Positions 19,573 to 25,517 of a DNA stretch of 64,000 nucleotides are shown here, in pieces; position 1 is the first letter of the stretch, and each line of letters starts with the position of its first letter. The position numbers and the translations under genes are program-made. The stretch is from NCBI RefSeq assembly GCF_002723935.1, contig NZ_BEWM01000005.1, positions 124,001 to 188,000 on the forward strand. Direction: 5' to 3'. A model generated the notes under the pieces. That model was given only the letters and a program-made list of their open reading frames with translations, was not told the DNA's origin and did not search any database. The DNA comes from Gluconobacter cerinus. GTDB taxonomy: Bacteria > Pseudomonadota > Alphaproteobacteria > Acetobacterales > Acetobacteraceae.

Positions 19573-19589
19573 TGGTGTCCGTGAGAGGA
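19573..19589. repeat. Distal attachment-site repeat
   Basis: TGGTGTCCGTGAGAGGA matches the tRNA-Arg 3' end at 24526-24542 in 16 of 17 positions, in the same orientation. The single change (T for C at 19582) is expected for a copy no longer under selection as tRNA. Confidence 0.8.
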
Positions 19590-19703
19590 ATAGGTTCCTG
19601 TTGTAAAATCAATTAGTTGCGTTTTAAAATGGTACTAATGCTAGCACACAGAATCAACGACTTACGGCGAAGTTGTAAAACAAATCTAGCTAACCTCAGT
19701 ACG

Positions 19704-19906
19704 TCATTCAGCACATTTTTTCCGGAATTCTTCCATCTGAAGAGCCGATGTGATGAGGTTGGGACAGTCCTGCCGGTGCCCCGGATCTCGGCCGCCATCC
19801 CCTTCTGGAAATCGGCCGTCCAGGGGTGCAAGGCAGGACACACAACCTTCAGCCGTGGCTGCGCACACCCAGTCAGTGCCAGGCACAACAAAACAGTCCG
19901 CATCAC
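19704..19906 (-). pseudogene. Frameshifted outer-membrane spanin (Rz1-like lipoprotein)
   Basis: The start codon (GTG 19906-19904) opens a lipoprotein with a lipobox ending LALTGC, followed by a short Pro/Cys-containing segment (VCPALHPWTADFQ). That frame then runs into unrelated sequence. A second frame continues with ITSALQMEEFRKKCAE and a stop at 19704, a charged C terminus of the kind seen in o-spanins. A single lost C in the CCC run near 19763-19768 would join them. The start overlaps the i-spanin stop, as Rz1 genes overlap Rz. An intact o-spanin would pair with the i-spanin to fuse the two membranes at lysis. Confidence 0.65.
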
Positions 19907-20132
19907 GCCTTCCCCTTGTCCAGAGCATCCAGCAGTTCATCCACAGTCTGCGGAGCATCAGCACCGCGCTGGTCCATGACCTGCTGTTGCGCCACCTGAG
20001 ATTGAGCTTCCTTAACGTCCTGGTCAGCCGTATCGGCTTTCTGCGATTTGCCCCGGCTCGATAGAGTTCGAGAGCCGACGCCATGCCCACGAGGAGCATG
20101 ACACCGACAATCGCCAGATTGGCTGTATTCAC
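19903..20132 (-). pseudogene. Frameshifted inner-membrane spanin (Rz-like)
   Basis: The GTG at 20132 overlaps the stop of the preceding gene. It encodes an N-terminal TM helix (LAIVGVMLLVGMASALELY) and then goes out of frame. The neighbouring frame continues with a hydrophilic coiled-coil-like tail (DTADQDVKEAQSQVAQQQVM) and ends DALDKGKA at 19903. One base lost near 20036-20042, in the AGAAAGCC stretch, would restore a single protein of about 76 residues with the topology of an i-spanin. It sits between the holin/lysozyme region and the o-spanin, as expected for a lysis cassette. Confidence 0.6.
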
Positions 20133-20398
20133 TGGGCAGGCGCTTCCTTGGCTGACTGACCAGCCGGACCGGCAGCGATGACACGCTCCAGTTCCGTGGC
20201 ACCTTCCAGCGTTTTAGTCAGAGCAGCATCGAAGGCCGTGATATCGACATGCTCAGCCAGCTTCGACATAGAGGCCGCGAGAACACTCTGAAGGACGAGA
20301 CCGCCGACGCTGATGCCCTGCTGGACCGAGGGTGTATCAGCCTTGCCCAGAGACTGGTTCACAAGACCTTCAAGGGCCGTCACAGAATCAAAAGCCAT
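20129..20398 (-). CDS. Small phage protein of unknown function in the lysis cassette
   Basis: The 89-residue protein begins MAFDSVTALEGLVNQSLG and is acidic and helical, with no TM or signal. ATG at 20398 is chosen because a terminator hairpin ends 16 bases upstream; the frame upstream of it reads through that hairpin. The stop overlaps the i-spanin start (GTGA). I do not recognise a family. It is probably a phage structural or lysis-associated accessory protein. Confidence 0.6.
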   Translation of the reverse strand: MAFDSVTALEGLVNQSLGKADTPSVQQGISVGGLVLQSVLAASMSKLAEHVDITAFDAALTKTLEGATELERVIAAGPAGQSAKEAPAQ

Positions 20399-20413
20399 TG
20401 GTGCTTCTTCCAT

Positions 20414-20438
20414 AAAAAAAGCCGCCTCGATGGGCGGC
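20414..20438 (-). terminator. Rho-independent terminator directly before a phage gene
   Basis: On the minus strand GCCGCC (20438-20433) pairs with GGCGGC (20426-20421), followed by seven T. The next gene starts 16 bases downstream. The arrangement is nearly duplicated at 22169-22192. Confidence 0.75.
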
Positions 20439-20530
20439 ATTGCATCCGACGGTCTGACAGCTGGGGTGCTGCCTCCTTCGGAGATCTGAGGAATGAGGAT
20501 AATCGAGCCAGGACCGGCTGAAGGGTTCAG

Positions 20531-20857
20531 TCAGGTCGGTGCTTTAGGCTTTCCCTTGCTGTCGAGGATCTGCACACCACTGTCTGCGCCGGCCTTTTTC
20601 AGAAGTGGCGCTTCGGCCCGCGTCGTCATGACGGCCGTGAGCCCGATCTTATACATGGCGGCGGCATATTTCTGCTCAAAGGCCAGAAAGCTCAGAAGTT
20701 GATACGGCCTGACCCAAAGAGATCTGGGAGCCGGAGGGGCAATCCGAGACCGCAGGAAACCACAGACATTCAGCAGCACCGAGGCCAGAACAAGAAACAT
20801 ACCACCCCAGAACAGGACCTGCGGCGGGAGCAGTCCGAAAAGATCAGACCATTGCAT
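20531..20857 (-). CDS. Holin candidate (one-TM phage protein)
   Basis: The 108-residue protein starts MQWSDLFGLLPPQ and has one strong TM segment (about residues 13-33, VLFWGGMFLVLASVLLNVCG). A hydrophilic C-terminal part of about 70 residues is rich in Lys and Ala. Its start overlaps the endolysin stop by 14 bases. Size, membrane segment and location beside the endolysin and spanins fit a holin, but sequence alone does not prove this. ATG at 20857 is preferred over the upstream frame extension inside the lysozyme gene. Confidence 0.5.
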   Translation of the reverse strand: MQWSDLFGLLPPQVLFWGGMFLVLASVLLNVCGFLRSRIAPPAPRSLWVRPYQLLSFLAFEQKYAAAMYKIGLTAVMTTRAEAPLLKKAGADSGVQILDSKGKPKAPT

Positions 20858-21347
20858 GGTTCGCCCCCATGACTGTCCGCTTGCCCAGAAATACGTCCCG
20901 TTCATAGGCGCGACGGTTGGTCAGGCCGGCCAACTCGACCAGATGGCCTTTCACGGTCGCCTTGTTCCAGCGTGGCAGTTCATTGGCCGCGCCGGCATAA
21001 TCCCCGGCATTCAGCTTACGCAGAAGCGTGGAGCTTTCCATGGCCGGTGTGCCGACATTGTATTGCCAGGACAGGAGTGCCGCCCGCTGGACATCCGAGA
21101 GCGGAACTTTGACCAGGCGCGACAAGGCAGCATCATAATTCATGACCGACTGGAGCAGCAGACTGGCCGCGTTTGCTTCACTCATGGGCGGCGTTTTGGC
21201 CGTGACGGGTTTCCCGGATCTCAGCCAGCGGCTGCCATAGCCGATCGTCCAGTAGCCGGCAGGGCAGACATAAGGCTTTGACCGGAATCCTTCGAAATCG
21301 GGCAGCTTTAGAAGCGCCGTGGCCAGCACGACGGCAGTTTCATTCAT
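20844..21347 (-). CDS. Phage endolysin, GH24 lysozyme
   Basis: The 167-residue muramidase cleaves the MurNAc-GlcNAc bond of peptidoglycan at phage lysis. The GH24 catalytic pattern is visible: Glu in FEGFRSKPY (about residue 19), then WTIGYGSRW with the conserved Thr-Gly-Tyr-Gly at about 34-37. The VQRAALLSWQYNVGT block (about 100-114) is typical of T4/lambdoid-type lysozymes, as is RR.YERDVFL near the end. No signal peptide or anchor is seen, so it should need a holin. The frame looks intact, unlike the spanins downstream. Confidence 0.9.
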   Translation of the reverse strand: MNETAVVLATALLKLPDFEGFRSKPYVCPAGYWTIGYGSRWLRSGKPVTAKTPPMSEANAASLLLQSVMNYDAALSRLVKVPLSDVQRAALLSWQYNVGTPAMESSTLLRKLNAGDYAGAANELPRWNKATVKGHLVELAGLTNRRAYERDVFLGKRTVMGANHAMV

Positions 21348-21411
21348 TTGATGTACTCCCAGAAAGTAAGATTTTACGTCTTCCTAATTTCTTGATTTTG
21401 ATCTTTAATGA

Positions 21412-21822
21412 TTGGAAATTTTCTTGGGGATTGCTGTGTTTCTTGGGTTAAGTATTGCTGATTCAATTTCTTTTTCTTCATCAATGTTTGCTGGATTTGG
21501 AGCGCTTTTGGCATTTTCAGTTGCGAATGGACAAAGAAACCAAGGCGGACAATCTATAGAAATACAAAAATTTATATTAAAAAGAGATGCTTGGAGAAAA
21601 ATAGCTGAATTAAATGATAGATATGAATATTCAATTCCGAATAGTCTTTATGAAATAAAGTCTGCCCTAGACGAATTAGACATGGTTATGCCTGGATATT
21701 CAGATAATTGTCGATATAATATTGATAGATATAATAGCAATACTTCAGGAGTTGATTTTGGAGTTATCAGAATTTCTCTGTATGAATTGAAGATTAAATT
21801 ACAGAATGATTTGAGTTTGTAA
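21412..21822 (+). CDS. AT-rich two-TM protein, possible prophage cargo (moron)
   Basis: The 136-residue frame is strongly A+T-rich compared with everything around it and is read against the surrounding phage genes. The protein starts (TTG at 21412) with two hydrophobic segments (about residues 3-15 and 25-40). A hydrophilic helical region follows (QSIEIQKFILKRDAWRKIAELNDRY) and then a Tyr/Asn-rich C terminus. I recognise no family. Opposite orientation, foreign composition and an apparently intact frame inside a decayed prophage fit a lysogenic-conversion gene; immunity or superinfection exclusion would be a guess. Confidence 0.6.
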   Translation: MEIFLGIAVFLGLSIADSISFSSSMFAGFGALLAFSVANGQRNQGGQSIEIQKFILKRDAWRKIAELNDRYEYSIPNSLYEIKSALDELDMVMPGYSDNCRYNIDRYNSNTSGVDFGVIRISLYELKIKLQNDLSL

Positions 21823-21890
21823 TGTTTGTTTCCCGATAGACACCACCAGGTGAGCCACCCCGGATCCAAGGATTGACGTCGCTAGGGTGA

Positions 21891-22157
21891 TCAGCGCCGT
21901 GACAACGGCTCCATGACGCGGTCCACCTTGGATCCAAGCGCCTTGATCCCATCTTCCAGATCTTCCTTCAGATCGCTGATCTGAGTGCGCAGGGATGCAA
22001 TTTCAGAGCGCATTTCAGCCCGCAGATCAGACTGATTGTCGCCAAGAGCGGAGACCAGAGTTTCAAGCTTGAGAACTCGATCTTCCAGAACCCGAATGAT
22101 CTCGTCCTTACTTGTGGGCGCAAAGAGAGCAGGAGCGGAAGTTTGTGTGTCAGGCAT
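21891..22157 (-). CDS. Small phage coiled-coil protein
   Basis: The 88-residue protein has a long predicted coiled coil from about residue 17 to 75 (heptads in EDRVLKLETLVSALGDNQ and ISDLKEDLEDGIKALGSK). There is no TM or signal. Similar small coiled-coil proteins sit just before lysis genes in tailed phages, but no function can be named. ATG at 22157 lies just below a terminator hairpin, repeating the layout seen at 20398. Confidence 0.6.
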   Translation of the reverse strand: MPDTQTSAPALFAPTSKDEIIRVLEDRVLKLETLVSALGDNQSDLRAEMRSEIASLRTQISDLKEDLEDGIKALGSKVDRVMEPLSRR

Positions 22158-22168
22158 GGTTTTTCCAT

Positions 22169-22192
22169 AAAAAAAGCCACCCGGAGGCGGCT
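22169..22192 (-). terminator. Rho-independent terminator directly before the coiled-coil gene
   Basis: On the minus strand AGCCGCC (22192-22186) pairs with GGTGGCT (22181-22175), one G-T pair, with a 4-nt loop and seven T. It is followed by ATGGAA..ACC-ATG, as at 20414-20438. Confidence 0.75.
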
Positions 22193-22194
22193 GT

Positions 22195-22348
22195 CAGAAC
22201 AGGGGTAGGTATGAGGGCTGGCGATCAGGCCAGGACCGACCGGGTCAGGCCGTGCCGGCAATGCCGTGCTGGTCGTGTCAGTACCGCTGGCAATCGCCGC
22301 GATAGCCTTCATCGCGTCGGTGAAGGTGGAGGGATCGAAGAACTCTTG
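22195..22348 (-). pseudogene. 3' remnant of a phage gene cut by the insertion sequence
   Basis: In one minus-strand frame about 45 codons read as a plausible protein end (FFDPSTFTDAMKAIAAIASG, then an Ala/Pro-rich tail). The frame is open towards the IS and runs past the terminator at 22192-22169 instead of stopping before it. This suggests a small frameshift near its end. It was probably part of a phage tail or structural protein whose 5' part was lost when the IS arrived or through later deletion. Confidence 0.4.
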
Positions 22349-22354
22349 ATTGAT

Positions 22355-23620
22355 AAGCTTGGACCGTAATTTCTGGGTTTTGGCGATTTGGTTGACGGTT
22401 TTCGGGTAATCTTTCGGTCTGCGTTTTGAGCAGATTGGGGGCTGTTACCCGCTGAATGACTACGCGCTCGCGTTCAATCTTTCGAGGAAGAGGAAGCGGC
22501 GCATGTTGTAGACGATATTGGCCAGCCCGATCCTCATGGTGGCTCGGCTGATGCCGACAGTACGGATGAATAGTCCCGTCTGCGATTTCTGATCGGCAAA
22601 GACGTGCTCAACACGAGATCGGATCACGGACTTTCCTGCGTTGGATCTCTGGATATGCCGGGACATCGGTTTGAGATGCGGCTTTTTTCTGTGAACCCTC
22701 GAGACAAAGCCCTGCTTTTCCATAAAGTCTTCATTGGCTTTGGAGCGATAGGCCGTGTCAGCCCAGACCGTTGAGGATGTATTGCTTTTATCAAGCAAGC
22801 CCTCTCTCAATCGCGCGCCGTCACTGGCGGCAGCATCTGTCGTCTTCCATTTACGGATCAGCCGAAATTTCCGATCGGTGGAGATGTGCGACTTGTAACC
22901 AAAAAAACGGGATGGCCAGATCCGTTGCGGGCATACTCCCGTCTTCCTGTCGCTACGCTTTCGTGAACTTCAGGGTCCAGCGCGCATGCCTGTCCTTGTG
23001 GGACAGCTTTGACGGCTTGTCCTGCCACTCCTGTGGGATCTGTCCTTCCCGAAGATCGTTTTTCTCTGCGTTGGTGTTCCGCTGCTTTGGAGCAGCCACC
23101 AGTGTGGCATCCCGGATCTGGCCTGACATCGGTAAATACCCGGCGTTGCGCAGGATTGCGTCAAAGCGGTTGAACAGCCCATCGATCGTACCCGCCTGTG
23201 TCAGACGTTCGCGGAACAGTCAGACCGTTTTGGCATCCGGCACCTGATCTGAAAGCTCCAAACCAAGGAAGCGCATAAAGGAGATGCGGTCGTTGATCAG
23301 ATATTCCGTCCGTTCATCAGACAAATTGTTCAATGTCTGGATCACCAGAATCTTGAACATCAAAACGGGATCAAATGGCGGTCGTCCGCCCTTGCTTCCA
23401 TCGGAATACGCCAGGGTCTTGTCCAAATCAGGGCGGAACGCTTCAAAATCCACAGTCCGGGAAAACGCTTCGAGCTGATCGCCAAGCCCGCTCAGCCGGG
23501 CAAGTCGCTCTTCATCATCAAAGAAACCAGACTGCTTCATCATCCATTCCCTCAATCAATGCAGGAGTGATGGAATCACACAGAGAGACTCAAAACCAGA
23601 GGGTTTTTCGAACCCTCCAG
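22355..23620 (-). mobile_element. IS5-family insertion sequence, inactive (ends approximate)
   Basis: An IS5-type transposase remnant fills this stretch. I could not fix the terminal inverted repeats. The left end lies around 22350-22380 and the right end around 23560-23625; CTGGTTTTGA-like stretches near both ends may belong to them. The element lies in the prophage between the truncated phage gene and the integrase, and probably removed or replaced the 5' end of the latter. Confidence 0.65.
22460..23543 (-). pseudogene. IS5-family transposase with two stops and a frameshift
   Basis: The N-terminal part (MMKQSGFFDDEERLARL onward) and the C-terminal part (VWADTAYRSKA, then SRVEHVFADQ) are both clear. 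They carry the DDE residues: Asp in RDATLVAAP, Asp in WADTAY and Glu in RVEHVF. Three lesions separate them: TGA at 23222-23220 where WLFRERL should begin, TAG at 22955-22953 replacing a Lys codon in the KAKRQ position, and an extra base in the A7/T7 run at 22901-22907 (IPFFGYKSH). The last could be repaired by slippage but the two stops could not, so the element cannot move by itself. Confidence 0.85.
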
Positions 23621-24465
23621 ATTGAACGCCCACCAGCACCTAAAACACTGGCTTACCTAATCGATCTTTGGATCAAATCGGCTCGGTTCATGTCGTTAGG
23701 AAAGAACACGCAGAGGAACTATCGTCGTCTGCTGATGTCGATGCAGAAAGCGCCCTATGCTGACGACTACGTGGAACATTTCCAGACAATCCACCTGCGC
23801 CGTTTTGTAGCTGAGTTTGCGGATAGACCAGCGGCTGCCAATCATCGGATCAAATTGTTTCGGATGCTCTTCGATTATGCCGTCGATGACGGCTGGCGCG
23901 CAGATAATCCAGCTACTCCGCTCAAGAGATACAAGGAAAAAGCCGATGGGGCGGAAACGTGGTCAGATGATCAGATCCGGCAGTATGAAGATTATTGGCC
24001 GAGCGGGTCCGTACAGCGTCGAGCTTTGGCGCTCCTGCTGTACGCGGGGCAGCGTCGCAGTGACGTTGTGAGAATGGAACGGAAGCACCTGCGTGGAGAT
24101 ATTATCGAAGTGACCCAGCAGAAAACGGGAACATCACTGAAGATACCAGTTCACCCTCACCTTATGACTGAATTATTGCAGGCACCGGAAACGGGAAATT
24201 TTTTACAGCGTCGTAACGGGTTATCTTTTACGGCCAACGGATTTTACATGCGATTCAAGTCGTGGCGTGACGCTGCAGGTGCCTTAGTCCTCATGGCCTA
24301 AGAAAAGCAGCTGGCCGCCGACTTGCAGAAGCTGGGTGCACGCCTCACTAGATCGCCGCGATAACAGGGCACGCAACTTTGTCTGAAGTGGAACAATATG
24401 CTCGCGCTGTTGACCAAAAGAAGCTTGCTAGAGAGGCAATGAAACGGATGAGGGCTGTAAAATAA
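23570..24465 (+). pseudogene. Prophage tyrosine integrase, broken by a frameshift and an amber codon
   Basis: The frame reads as a phage tyrosine recombinase with a SAM-like core-binding domain (WIKSARFMSLGKNTQRNYRRL) and the catalytic domain. The first catalytic Arg is in YAGQRRSDVVRM. At 24287-24292 one base is missing: restoring a C turns LVLMA-stop into LVPHGLRKAAGRRLAEAGC, the second catalytic box. That restored frame meets TAG at 24349-24351 and then continues with IAAITGHATLSEVEQYARA, including the nucleophilic Tyr, to TAA at 24463-24465. The true N terminus is unclear because the IS abuts it. It points toward the tRNA, as an att-adjacent integrase should. Confidence 0.88.
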
Positions 24466-24525
24466 AACTCAAAAACTGTAAAACAGTCTCAGAAAAAGGC
24501 AGAAAATGGCGCGTTATTGTTTTTG

Positions 24526-24542
24526 TGGTGTCCGCGAGAGGA
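24526..24542. repeat. Proximal attachment-site repeat (tRNA-Arg 3' end)
   Basis: This 17-bp stretch spans the CCA, the acceptor 3' strand and part of the T-stem. It recurs at 19573-19589 with one mismatch. Together they mark the prophage ends. Confidence 0.8.
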
Positions 24543-24565
24543 TTCGAACCTCCGGCCCCAGGATT

Positions 24566-24799
24566 CATACCACTTCGACTTTCGCCGCCATGCCCTTGAG
24601 CATGTTCGTGGTCTGGACTGTCTCTTCACCACAGCCCCCTAAGCGGCCAAGGTGTCACCCGTACAGTCTCTACACCTTCTTTCCAACCAATGCGGAAAGC
24701 TTGGCTCGGGATTGGCACGGTTCAAATGAACCAGAGCGTTCCCCGAATTTGAGTGAATCCACCATGAAGTTTCCTGTCATGGCGCCCAATTCAGACCTT
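24566..24799 (-). ncRNA. Self-splicing group I intron in the tRNA-Arg(CCU) anticodon loop
   Basis: The 234-nt intron follows a U at the end of the 5' exon and ends in G, as group I introns do. Core elements read in order on the minus strand: CAATCCCGAGCCAAGC (the P4 side), GTGTAGAGACTGTACGG (P6/P7 5' side) and GAAGAGACAGTCC (P7 3' side). GACTGT and ACAGTC can pair as P7. AGGAA soon after the splice site can pair with exon TTCCT as part of P1. No reading frame for a homing endonuclease is present. Group I introns are known in tRNA-Arg(CCU) of Agrobacterium and other alphaproteobacteria. Confidence 0.92.
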
Positions 24800-24836
24800 A
24801 GGAATCCTGTGCTCTATCCTGCTGAGCTACGCGGAC

Positions 24837-25517
24837 ACACGAGGAACTAGTTATCCTAAGATGCTTTCACCTGCAAGCAGCGCTCTGGATAGCCTTAACA
24901 TTGAAAAAAAATGTTATTATTTTGCAAACTAAATATGATATCAGTGAAGCGGAAACGTTATTCATTCCGTAATTTAATTATCAAATTAACATAAAAACGT
25001 AAATCATATTTCCAATTATCGGGTTTTTGGCGTATTTATATGTCTAAATTTGGAGGCGAAAATGTAAGAACATTCTTGCACTTTCGTGTTGTCTGTGGTT
25101 CCAGTCATCCCTGTCTACATAGTTTTTTGATATCAAACTTTCAGAAGTGCCTGTGTCAAAAGCTGTCTCTGATGAAGTGCCATAGTCTTGGCTTATCCTG
25201 TGGATAGGTTGAGAAAGTAGTACGTAGCTGGGTGGTATATCTTTGCCTCAATGTATGAGTGTGAAGAATTGCTATCCTCGAAATAGACCCCTCCATAAAG
25301 ATTTCAAGAAATCTTCTGATGGGGTGTGGTTGCTGAACATTATCAGCGCCTGGGTAGGGAGGATGGTAATGCCACAGCCTGTTCCTACAGCGAGCGTTTT
25401 GAAACGCCTGTTTCAGGGCTGTTAGGGTTGAGGGTTGCTAGCCATGGTTTCGCATCGAATATCTGATCGAGATAGTCTGCGTCCTTTTCATGCGTTTCGG
25501 TCTGACTGCGGGTATTG
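24837..25517. other. AT-rich intergenic region between tRNA-Arg and the SARP regulator
   Basis: These 681 bases hold no convincing gene. The first 230 are very A+T-rich and probably contain the tRNA promoter on the minus strand. A perfect 8-bp hairpin (AAGATTTC, 2-nt loop) lies at 25298-25315, flanked by a further CCAT/ATGG pairing, but has no T-run. TGTGGATAG near 25199 resembles a single DnaA box. The right part must hold the promoter of the regulator gene. Confidence 0.5.

What the first reader, a model, noticed from the sequence alone, without database searches (positions are those of the whole stretch)
24526..24836. tRNA-Arg(CCU) carries a 234-nt group I intron in its anticodon loop
The two exons join to a canonical 77-nt tRNA with anticodon CCU. 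The insertion follows a U, ends in G, and contains ordered P4/P6/P7-like core motifs, with ACAGTC able to pair with GACTGT. Established knowledge: group I introns occur in tRNA-Arg(CCU) of Agrobacterium and some relatives. The sole AGG-reading tRNA, if it is the only copy, would depend on splicing. The intron lacks an endonuclease gene.
Basis: partly seen in the sequence, partly recalled or inferred. Interest (0 to 1): 0.85.

Follow-up and report, generated by a model that had tools for sequence, protein, structure and literature searches.

The report
Self-splicing intron inside arginine tRNA gene
An acetic-acid-type bacterium carries a small self-splicing RNA insert in the middle of one arginine tRNA gene; the insert is real and very probably works, but it is a new member of a family described decades ago.

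Summary
On the minus strand a 77-nt tRNA-Arg(CCU) is split by a 234-nt insert after U36 (5' exon 24836-24800, intron 24799-24566, 3' exon 24565-24526). The insert is a group I intron: RF00028 scores 45 bits over the whole model, E 2.3e-10, below Rfam's cut-off of 50. In 68 homologues P2, P3, P5, P6a, P8, P9, P9.1, P9.2 and one pair each of P4 and P7 keep pairing through changes on both sides; splice-site U, its guide partner G and the terminal G are invariant. No other Arg(CCU) gene was found in the draft assembly. Of 150 genomes sampled from the family, at least 58 carry the interrupted gene, 44 an intact one by a strict pattern, none both. The family is known: a Bartonella relative splices in vitro and in vivo (PMC7717549), and a footnote reports one in Asaia (PMC4596401). 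So it is a new member of a known kind. Beyond the window, the same core sits in at least 12 kinds of tRNA anticodon-loop site, its guide usually fits its own site, and Rfam's cut-off was passed by only 4 of the 58.

The parts
24800..24836 (-). 5' exon of tRNA-Arg(CCU), 37 nt, ending in the anticodon CCU
24566..24799 (-). group I intron, 234 nt, inserted between positions 36 and 37 of the tRNA
24526..24565 (-). 3' exon of tRNA-Arg(CCU), 40 nt including CCA
24785..24787 (-). internal guide sequence GGG: P1 with exon CCU, including the U.G pair at the 5' splice site
   Evidence: 68 of 68 homologues keep all three pairs; invariant, so no covariation inside this site
24788..24790 (-). AUU of the guide: P10 with the first bases AAU of the 3' exon
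   Evidence: 87.3% of cells paired in 68 homologues; shuffled letters 84.7%, slid versions at most 53%
24760..24784 (-). P2 hairpin (24784-24777 with 24767-24760) with GAAA loop
   Evidence: 89.9% paired v 71.1% shuffled, changes on both sides at 8 of 8 pairs; GNRA loop in 64 of 68
24751..24756 (-). P3 5' strand (partner 24660-24655)
   Evidence: 100% paired v 89.9% shuffled, changes on both sides at 4 of 6 pairs
24706..24746 (-). P4 (24746-24741 with 24711-24706) enclosing P5
   Evidence: P4 100% paired, one of 6 pairs changes on both sides in 4 of 68; P5 88.8% v 74.0% shuffled, changes on both sides at 5 of 5 pairs
24674..24705 (-). P6 and P6a
   Evidence: P6 invariant; P6a 91.8% paired v 62.4% shuffled, changes on both sides at 6 of 6 pairs
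24664..24668 (-). P7 5' strand, guanosine-binding helix (partner 24620-24616)
   Evidence: 5 pairs standard in 68 of 68; four invariant, the fifth G-C 57, A-U 7, U-A 4
24627..24654 (-). P8 (24654-24651 with 24630-24627)
   Evidence: 100% paired v 91.5% shuffled, changes on both sides at 3 of 4 pairs
24570..24611 (-). P9 (24611-24608 with 24573-24570) with P9.1 and P9.2; P9.2 has a GNRA loop
   Evidence: P9 100% v 96.5% shuffled; P9.1 95.0% v 63.8%; P9.2 99.6% v 90.3%; P9.2 loop GNRA in 68 of 68
24566..24566 (-). terminal guanosine of the intron (omega G)
   Evidence: G in 68 of 68
24526..24542 (+). 17-bp repeat in the 3' end of the tRNA; likely attachment site of a phage remnant, copy at 19573-19589 (16 of 17)

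Best explanation
The gene makes one precursor RNA. The 234-nt insert folds into a group I ribozyme: its guide GGG pairs with the anticodon CCU (P1, with a U.G pair at the splice site), a guanosine bound in P7 cuts after U36, the freed exon end attacks after the terminal G, and the two halves join into mature tRNA-Arg(CCU). P10 is offered by AUU next to the guide pairing with AAU of the 3' exon. It is an endonuclease-free member of the alphaproteobacterial tRNA-Arg(CCU) intron family in the Acetobacteraceae. Shown here: boundaries, fold by covariation, homology, mutual exclusion with intact copies. Inferred: the reaction itself, from the general group I mechanism and a relative that was shown to splice.
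For: Full-length RF00028 match, E 2.3e-10; spliced product is a canonical tRNA beyond chance; covariation over 68 homologues in eight helices and at one pair each of P4 and P7; splice-site U, its partner G and terminal G 68 of 68, 61 of 234 intron positions invariant; no Arg(CCU) backup found in the assembly and 0 of 58 carriers with an intact copy by a strict pattern. Introns in the same place in three Bartonella records (68-70% identical to this one); BbgpI of B. bacilliformis, described at the same tRNA, splices in vitro and in vivo (PMC7717549, one section and passages read). The window intron lies in a clade of 28 Arg(CCU) introns, support 96/90, nearest Gluconobacter vitians.
Against: No expression or splicing data for this organism. 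RF00028 stays below Rfam's own cut-off. The minimum-free-energy fold of the whole precursor was not compared with the native core; its z-score is only -2.57. P1 and P6 do not vary and P4 and P7 hardly do, so covariation tests them little or not at all. P10 is barely better than shuffled letters. The strict pattern for intact copies would miss one with changed exon bases.
Confidence: 0.96

Rival explanations
1. The intron is degenerate and the tRNA gene a pseudogene; AGG is read by tRNA-Arg(UCU).
For: tRNA-Arg(UCU) is present; AGG is rare, 33 of 1027 arginine codons in 26 long ORFs of the window.
Against: The core elements are intact and conserved; the tRNA stems pair in the window copy and, pair by pair, in 64-68 of the 66-68 homologues with letters there; no carrier of the intron showed an intact copy.
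Confidence: 0.03
2. The insert arrived with the phage remnant that sits at the 3' end of the tRNA and is part of that mobile element.
For: A 16/17-bp repeat and an integrase fragment lie next to the gene.
Against: The repeat lies in the 3' exon, downstream of the intron; the intron is at the same place in at least 58 of 150 genomes of the family and in other orders.
Confidence: 0.01

Closest known systems
BbgpI, group I intron in tRNA-Arg(CCU) of Bartonella bacilliformis (PMC7717549; section on BbgpI and passages read)
   Same: Same tRNA and, by the paper's account, the same alphaproteobacterial intron family; the tRNA gene was unannotated until the insert was taken out.
   Different: Other host order. 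BbgpI itself was not compared; introns of three other Bartonella records are 68-70% identical to the window intron.
tRNA-Arg(CCU) introns of Agrobacterium and other alphaproteobacteria (Paquin et al. 1999; only the reference entry seen; Reinhold-Hurek and Shub 1992, known from citations and recall)
   Same: Same insertion site and intron family, as far as the citing papers tell.
   Different: New host species; sequence comparison with the Agrobacterium intron itself was not made.
Split tRNA(Arg) of Asaia bogorensis NBRC 16594 (table footnote, PMC4596401, passages read)
   Same: Same bacterial family; G149, whose contig length equals that genome's 3,198,265 bp, has the homologous intron L056, 77% identical.
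   Different: In the passages seen the paper gives one footnote and no analysis.
Azoarcus tRNA-Ile(CAU) intron (subgroup IC3; recalled, and named in PMC3984707's reference list)
   Same: Related core, same position 36|37 (nine Ile(CAU) introns of other bacteria seen).
   Different: Other tRNA; guide GUG instead of GGG; in the tree the nine Ile(CAU) introns form their own group. The Azoarcus sequence itself was not compared.

Membership tests
Group I self-splicing introns | Conserved core P3-P8 with P7 guanosine site, and peripheral helices | tested here: met
   Full-length RF00028 alignment, E 2.3e-10; helices in 68 homologues
Group I self-splicing introns | U at the end of the 5' exon paired with G of the guide; G at the end of the intron | tested here: met
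   68 of 68 each; the Arg set was collected by exon ends, so the U is partly built in
Group I self-splicing introns | Guanosine-started splicing in vitro | not testable with these tools
   no experiment
Alphaproteobacterial tRNA-Arg(CCU) introns | Insertion after U36 of tRNA-Arg(CCU) | tested here: met
Alphaproteobacterial tRNA-Arg(CCU) introns | Common descent with the other members | tested here: met
   Clade of 28 Arg(CCU) rows, 96/90, with several alphaproteobacterial orders; bootstrap had not settled; not all 45 Arg(CCU) rows fall together (5 changes)
Subgroup IC3 | IC3 sub-type features | not tested
   assignment recalled from the literature on relatives
Rfam RF00028 as a curated database list (not the natural kind) | Bit score at or above the gathering score of 50 | tested here: not met
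   45 bits. A database cut-off, not a trait of the intron: 4 of 58 family copies passed it (stricter search filters)

The most novel reading that the evidence does not exclude
The window intron is one tip of a single, endonuclease-free intron family that has moved among at least a dozen kinds of tRNA anticodon-loop site in bacteria. It enters after a U at position 33-36, and both guide segments (P1 to the 5' exon, P10 to the 3' exon) are rewritten to fit each new tRNA, as expected of spread by reverse splicing and later adaptation. Several of these sites, such as Thr(GGU), Thr(UGU), Lys(UUU), Lys(CUU), Arg(UCU) and Leu(CAA), are overlooked because tRNA and Rfam scans miss them.
Probability: 0.5. 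Interest if true: 0.5.

Novelty: new member of a known kind. Interest (0 to 1): 0.27.

Why it matters
For the window itself: it restores a tRNA-Arg(CCU) that default ARAGORN and Rfam at its gathering score miss, and adds an acetic-acid-bacteria member to a family with a proven splicer. More widely: 54 of 58 copies in this family of bacteria did not reach Rfam's cut-off (stricter filters), so such tRNAs are probably missing from many annotations (inference), and the spread of one intron core over at least 12 kinds of tRNA site makes the old question of how endonuclease-free introns move testable by guide-sequence swaps in laboratory strains.

Tried and rejected
Rfam at gathering score and ARAGORN defaults found nothing; the permissive modes settled it. 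A first splice-site script gave no result through a wrong program option and was repeated. ARAGORN's own anticodon calls for intron-bearing genes were often wrong (Phe, Ser or Ile for Leu(UAA) genes), so sites were re-read by joining all T|...|G candidates and matching a table of exon ends that I wrote after seeing the first results. 25 of 143 core matches stayed unassigned, some cut off by contig or locus ends, some in no recognisable tRNA; a few of them gave good tRNA scores that fit no row of the table (for example L250, L282). Of the 118 assigned, the lowest scores are 111.3 (L243) and 114.7 (L264), not above the best random join, 114.7; these two rest on the core and the exon-end table. 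L090, read by eye as Thr(GGU), failed the script's core pattern and is not in the counts. Attempted tRNA-stem scores used wrong positions and were redone. Guide fit is not perfect: 125 of 169 introns fit their own site at 3 P1 + 2 P10 pairs (60 of 79 Arg(CCU), 42 of 61 Leu(UAA), 0 of 2 fMet), and foreign sites fit in 437 of 2028 trials; with 4 P1 pairs the Arg(CCU) set fits in 0 of 79. The Asn(GUU) intron L100 is very distant (end branch 2.79) and may not belong to the same family. The odd Leu-like tRNAs of L083 and L086 could not be assigned. Rows dropped: 4 of 79 Arg genes with N or identical, 2 of 75 near-copies, 5 of 73 with long insertions; for the tree, about a third of the family's further Arg introns were taken, 2 rows failed the core pattern or held N, and L100 was left out. 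Intact-gene loci L154-L167 were fetched but not analysed further; L168 was fetched without use.

Full report
Observation. The minus strand of 24836-24526 holds a tRNA-Arg(CCU) gene of 311 nt. Exons of 37 and 40 nt join to a 77-nt tRNA with all four stems and an encoded CCA; the 234-nt insert lies after U36 and ends in G. Default ARAGORN reports no tRNA in the window. Random joins of the same kind in this window gave 3 tRNA calls in 100,000, best score 114.7, against 123.1 here.

Identity of the insert. RF00028 matches it over its whole length at 45 bits, E 2.3e-10, under the gathering score of 50, and the search of the 3.58-Mb genome returned no other match at E<=1. P2, P3, P5, P6a, P8, P9, P9.1 and P9.2 keep pairing through changes on both sides and exceed both shuffled letters and slid partners. 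One of six P4 pairs and the fifth P7 pair do so too (P7: G-C 57, A-U 7, U-A 4); P1, P6 and the first four P7 pairs do not vary. 61 of 234 intron positions are invariant; GNRA loops close P2 in 64 of 68 and P9.2 in 68 of 68; the splice-site U, its partner G and the terminal G are 68 of 68. The P10 pairing AAU/AUU exists in the window, but across the set it is scarcely better than shuffled letters, 87.3% against 84.7%.

Host and dependence. The genome's 44 other tRNA genes include Arg(UCU), Arg(CCG) and two Arg(ACG) but no second CCU. The assembly is a draft (49 contigs, completeness 99.96) and shows no Ala(UGC) or Ile(GAU) gene, which I take to be lost with unassembled rRNA operons (inference). 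AGG is rare, 33 of 1027 arginine codons in 26 long ORFs of the window. The nearest intron in the tree is that of Gluconobacter vitians. A genome that the tool puts in the window's genus (G131) has a contig of the same length, 201,100 bp, as a record named uncultured Neokomagataea sp.. So the host is an acetic acid bacterium (Acetobacteraceae, by these two links); the exact species is unknown.

Distribution. Of 150 genomes drawn from the family, at least 58 carry an intron-interrupted tRNA-Arg(CCU) at this site (55 read cleanly by script, the other three, L130, L139 and L142, read by eye; the list was cut at its weak end). 44 carry an intact gene by a strict pattern, and no genome is in both sets; the remaining 48 fit neither test, and the pattern would miss intact genes with changed exon bases. 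Both states occur inside single genera, for example g50, g64 and g76. Only 4 of the 58 passed Rfam's cut-off in a search with stricter filters.

The wider family. With the window and 22 loci of the family, chosen because they looked like other-site introns or split or divergent copies, this made 143 core matches, of which 118 could be placed: Leu(UAA) 34|35 61, Arg(CCU) 36|37 28, Ile(CAU) 36|37 9, Thr(GGU) 36|37 5, and one or two each of fMet, another CAU tRNA, Lys(UUU) at two places, Lys(CUU), Thr(UGU), Arg(UCU), Leu(CAA) and, from a very distant intron, Asn(GUU). All enter after a U between positions 33 and 36; but the script only tried sites after T and before the end G, so that rule is partly built in. 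Some genomes have two introns, for example G079 (Arg(CCU) and Lys(UUU)) and G076 (Arg(CCU) and Arg(UCU)). The guide fits the intron's own exons in 125 of 169 and foreign exons in 437 of 2028 trials. On a tree of 134 introns the site label changes 17 times (least possible 11; shuffled mean 62.4), so sites are mostly kept, with some switches; starred branches force at least 3 changes for Arg(CCU) (bootstrap not settled). In G079 and G076 the second intron is not nearest to Arg(CCU) introns, which speaks for separate arrivals, not for copying inside the genome.

Known work. PMC7717549 (one section and passages read) describes an intron of this family in Bartonella bacilliformis, with splicing in vitro and in vivo, and cites Paquin et al. 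1999, whose title speaks of horizontal transmission and transposition; that paper is not held. PMC4596401 (passages) has the footnote on Asaia. [quoted passage not shown] PMC5733544 (passages) claims introns, one of them 49 nt long, in cyanobacterial tRNA-Arg, Gly and Lys. PMC4033280 and PMC3984707 (passages) treat bacterial tRNA introns in general. In my searches I noticed no paper on group I introns in bacterial Thr, Arg(UCU), Leu(CAA) or Asn tRNAs; most hits were judged by title and start of abstract only, one search listed 15 of 155, and the library is open-licence only, so this is weak evidence.

Verdict. The thing is a new member of a known family, with a nearly certain mechanism and modest interest; what is less ordinary is how widely the same core is spread over tRNA sites and how often the usual scans miss it.

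Noticed in passing
19573-24542: A phage remnant of about 4.95 kb lies between a 16/17-bp repeat at 19573-19589 and the 3' end of the tRNA (24526-24542). It holds an integrase fragment (23375-24301, PHROG integrase, no Pfam match), a phage lysozyme (20844-21347) and pieces of a transposase (22460-22810, 23220-23555). The tRNA stays whole.
   Followed up: partly
L081, L092, L084, L085, L087, L090, L100, L105: Group I introns in other tRNA genes of the same bacterial family: Lys(UUU), Arg(UCU), Thr(GGU) (four genomes, one read by eye), Asn(GUU), Leu(CAA).
   Followed up: partly
L212, L213 (Microbacterium, Tsukamurella); L241, L246 (Massilia, Thiobacillus); L258, L259: The same intron core in tRNA-Lys(UUU) of actinobacteria, tRNA-Thr(UGU) of betaproteobacteria and tRNA-Lys(CUU) of an acidobacterial and an alphaproteobacterial bin.
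   Followed up: partly
L083 and L086: A Leu-like tRNA gene with this intron and an unusual anticodon loop (C at position 33 in my reading), with a tRNA-Leu(CAA) gene about 100-150 nt downstream; could not be assigned.
   Followed up: no
24506-24850: A 114-codon plus-strand ORF covers the tRNA and intron; a mechanical ORF that automatic annotation might call a protein.
   Followed up: no
G000:C3:407748-407793 (L048): A partial tRNA-like match (23.5 bits) that ARAGORN does not accept, perhaps a tRNA fragment left by another integration.
   Followed up: no
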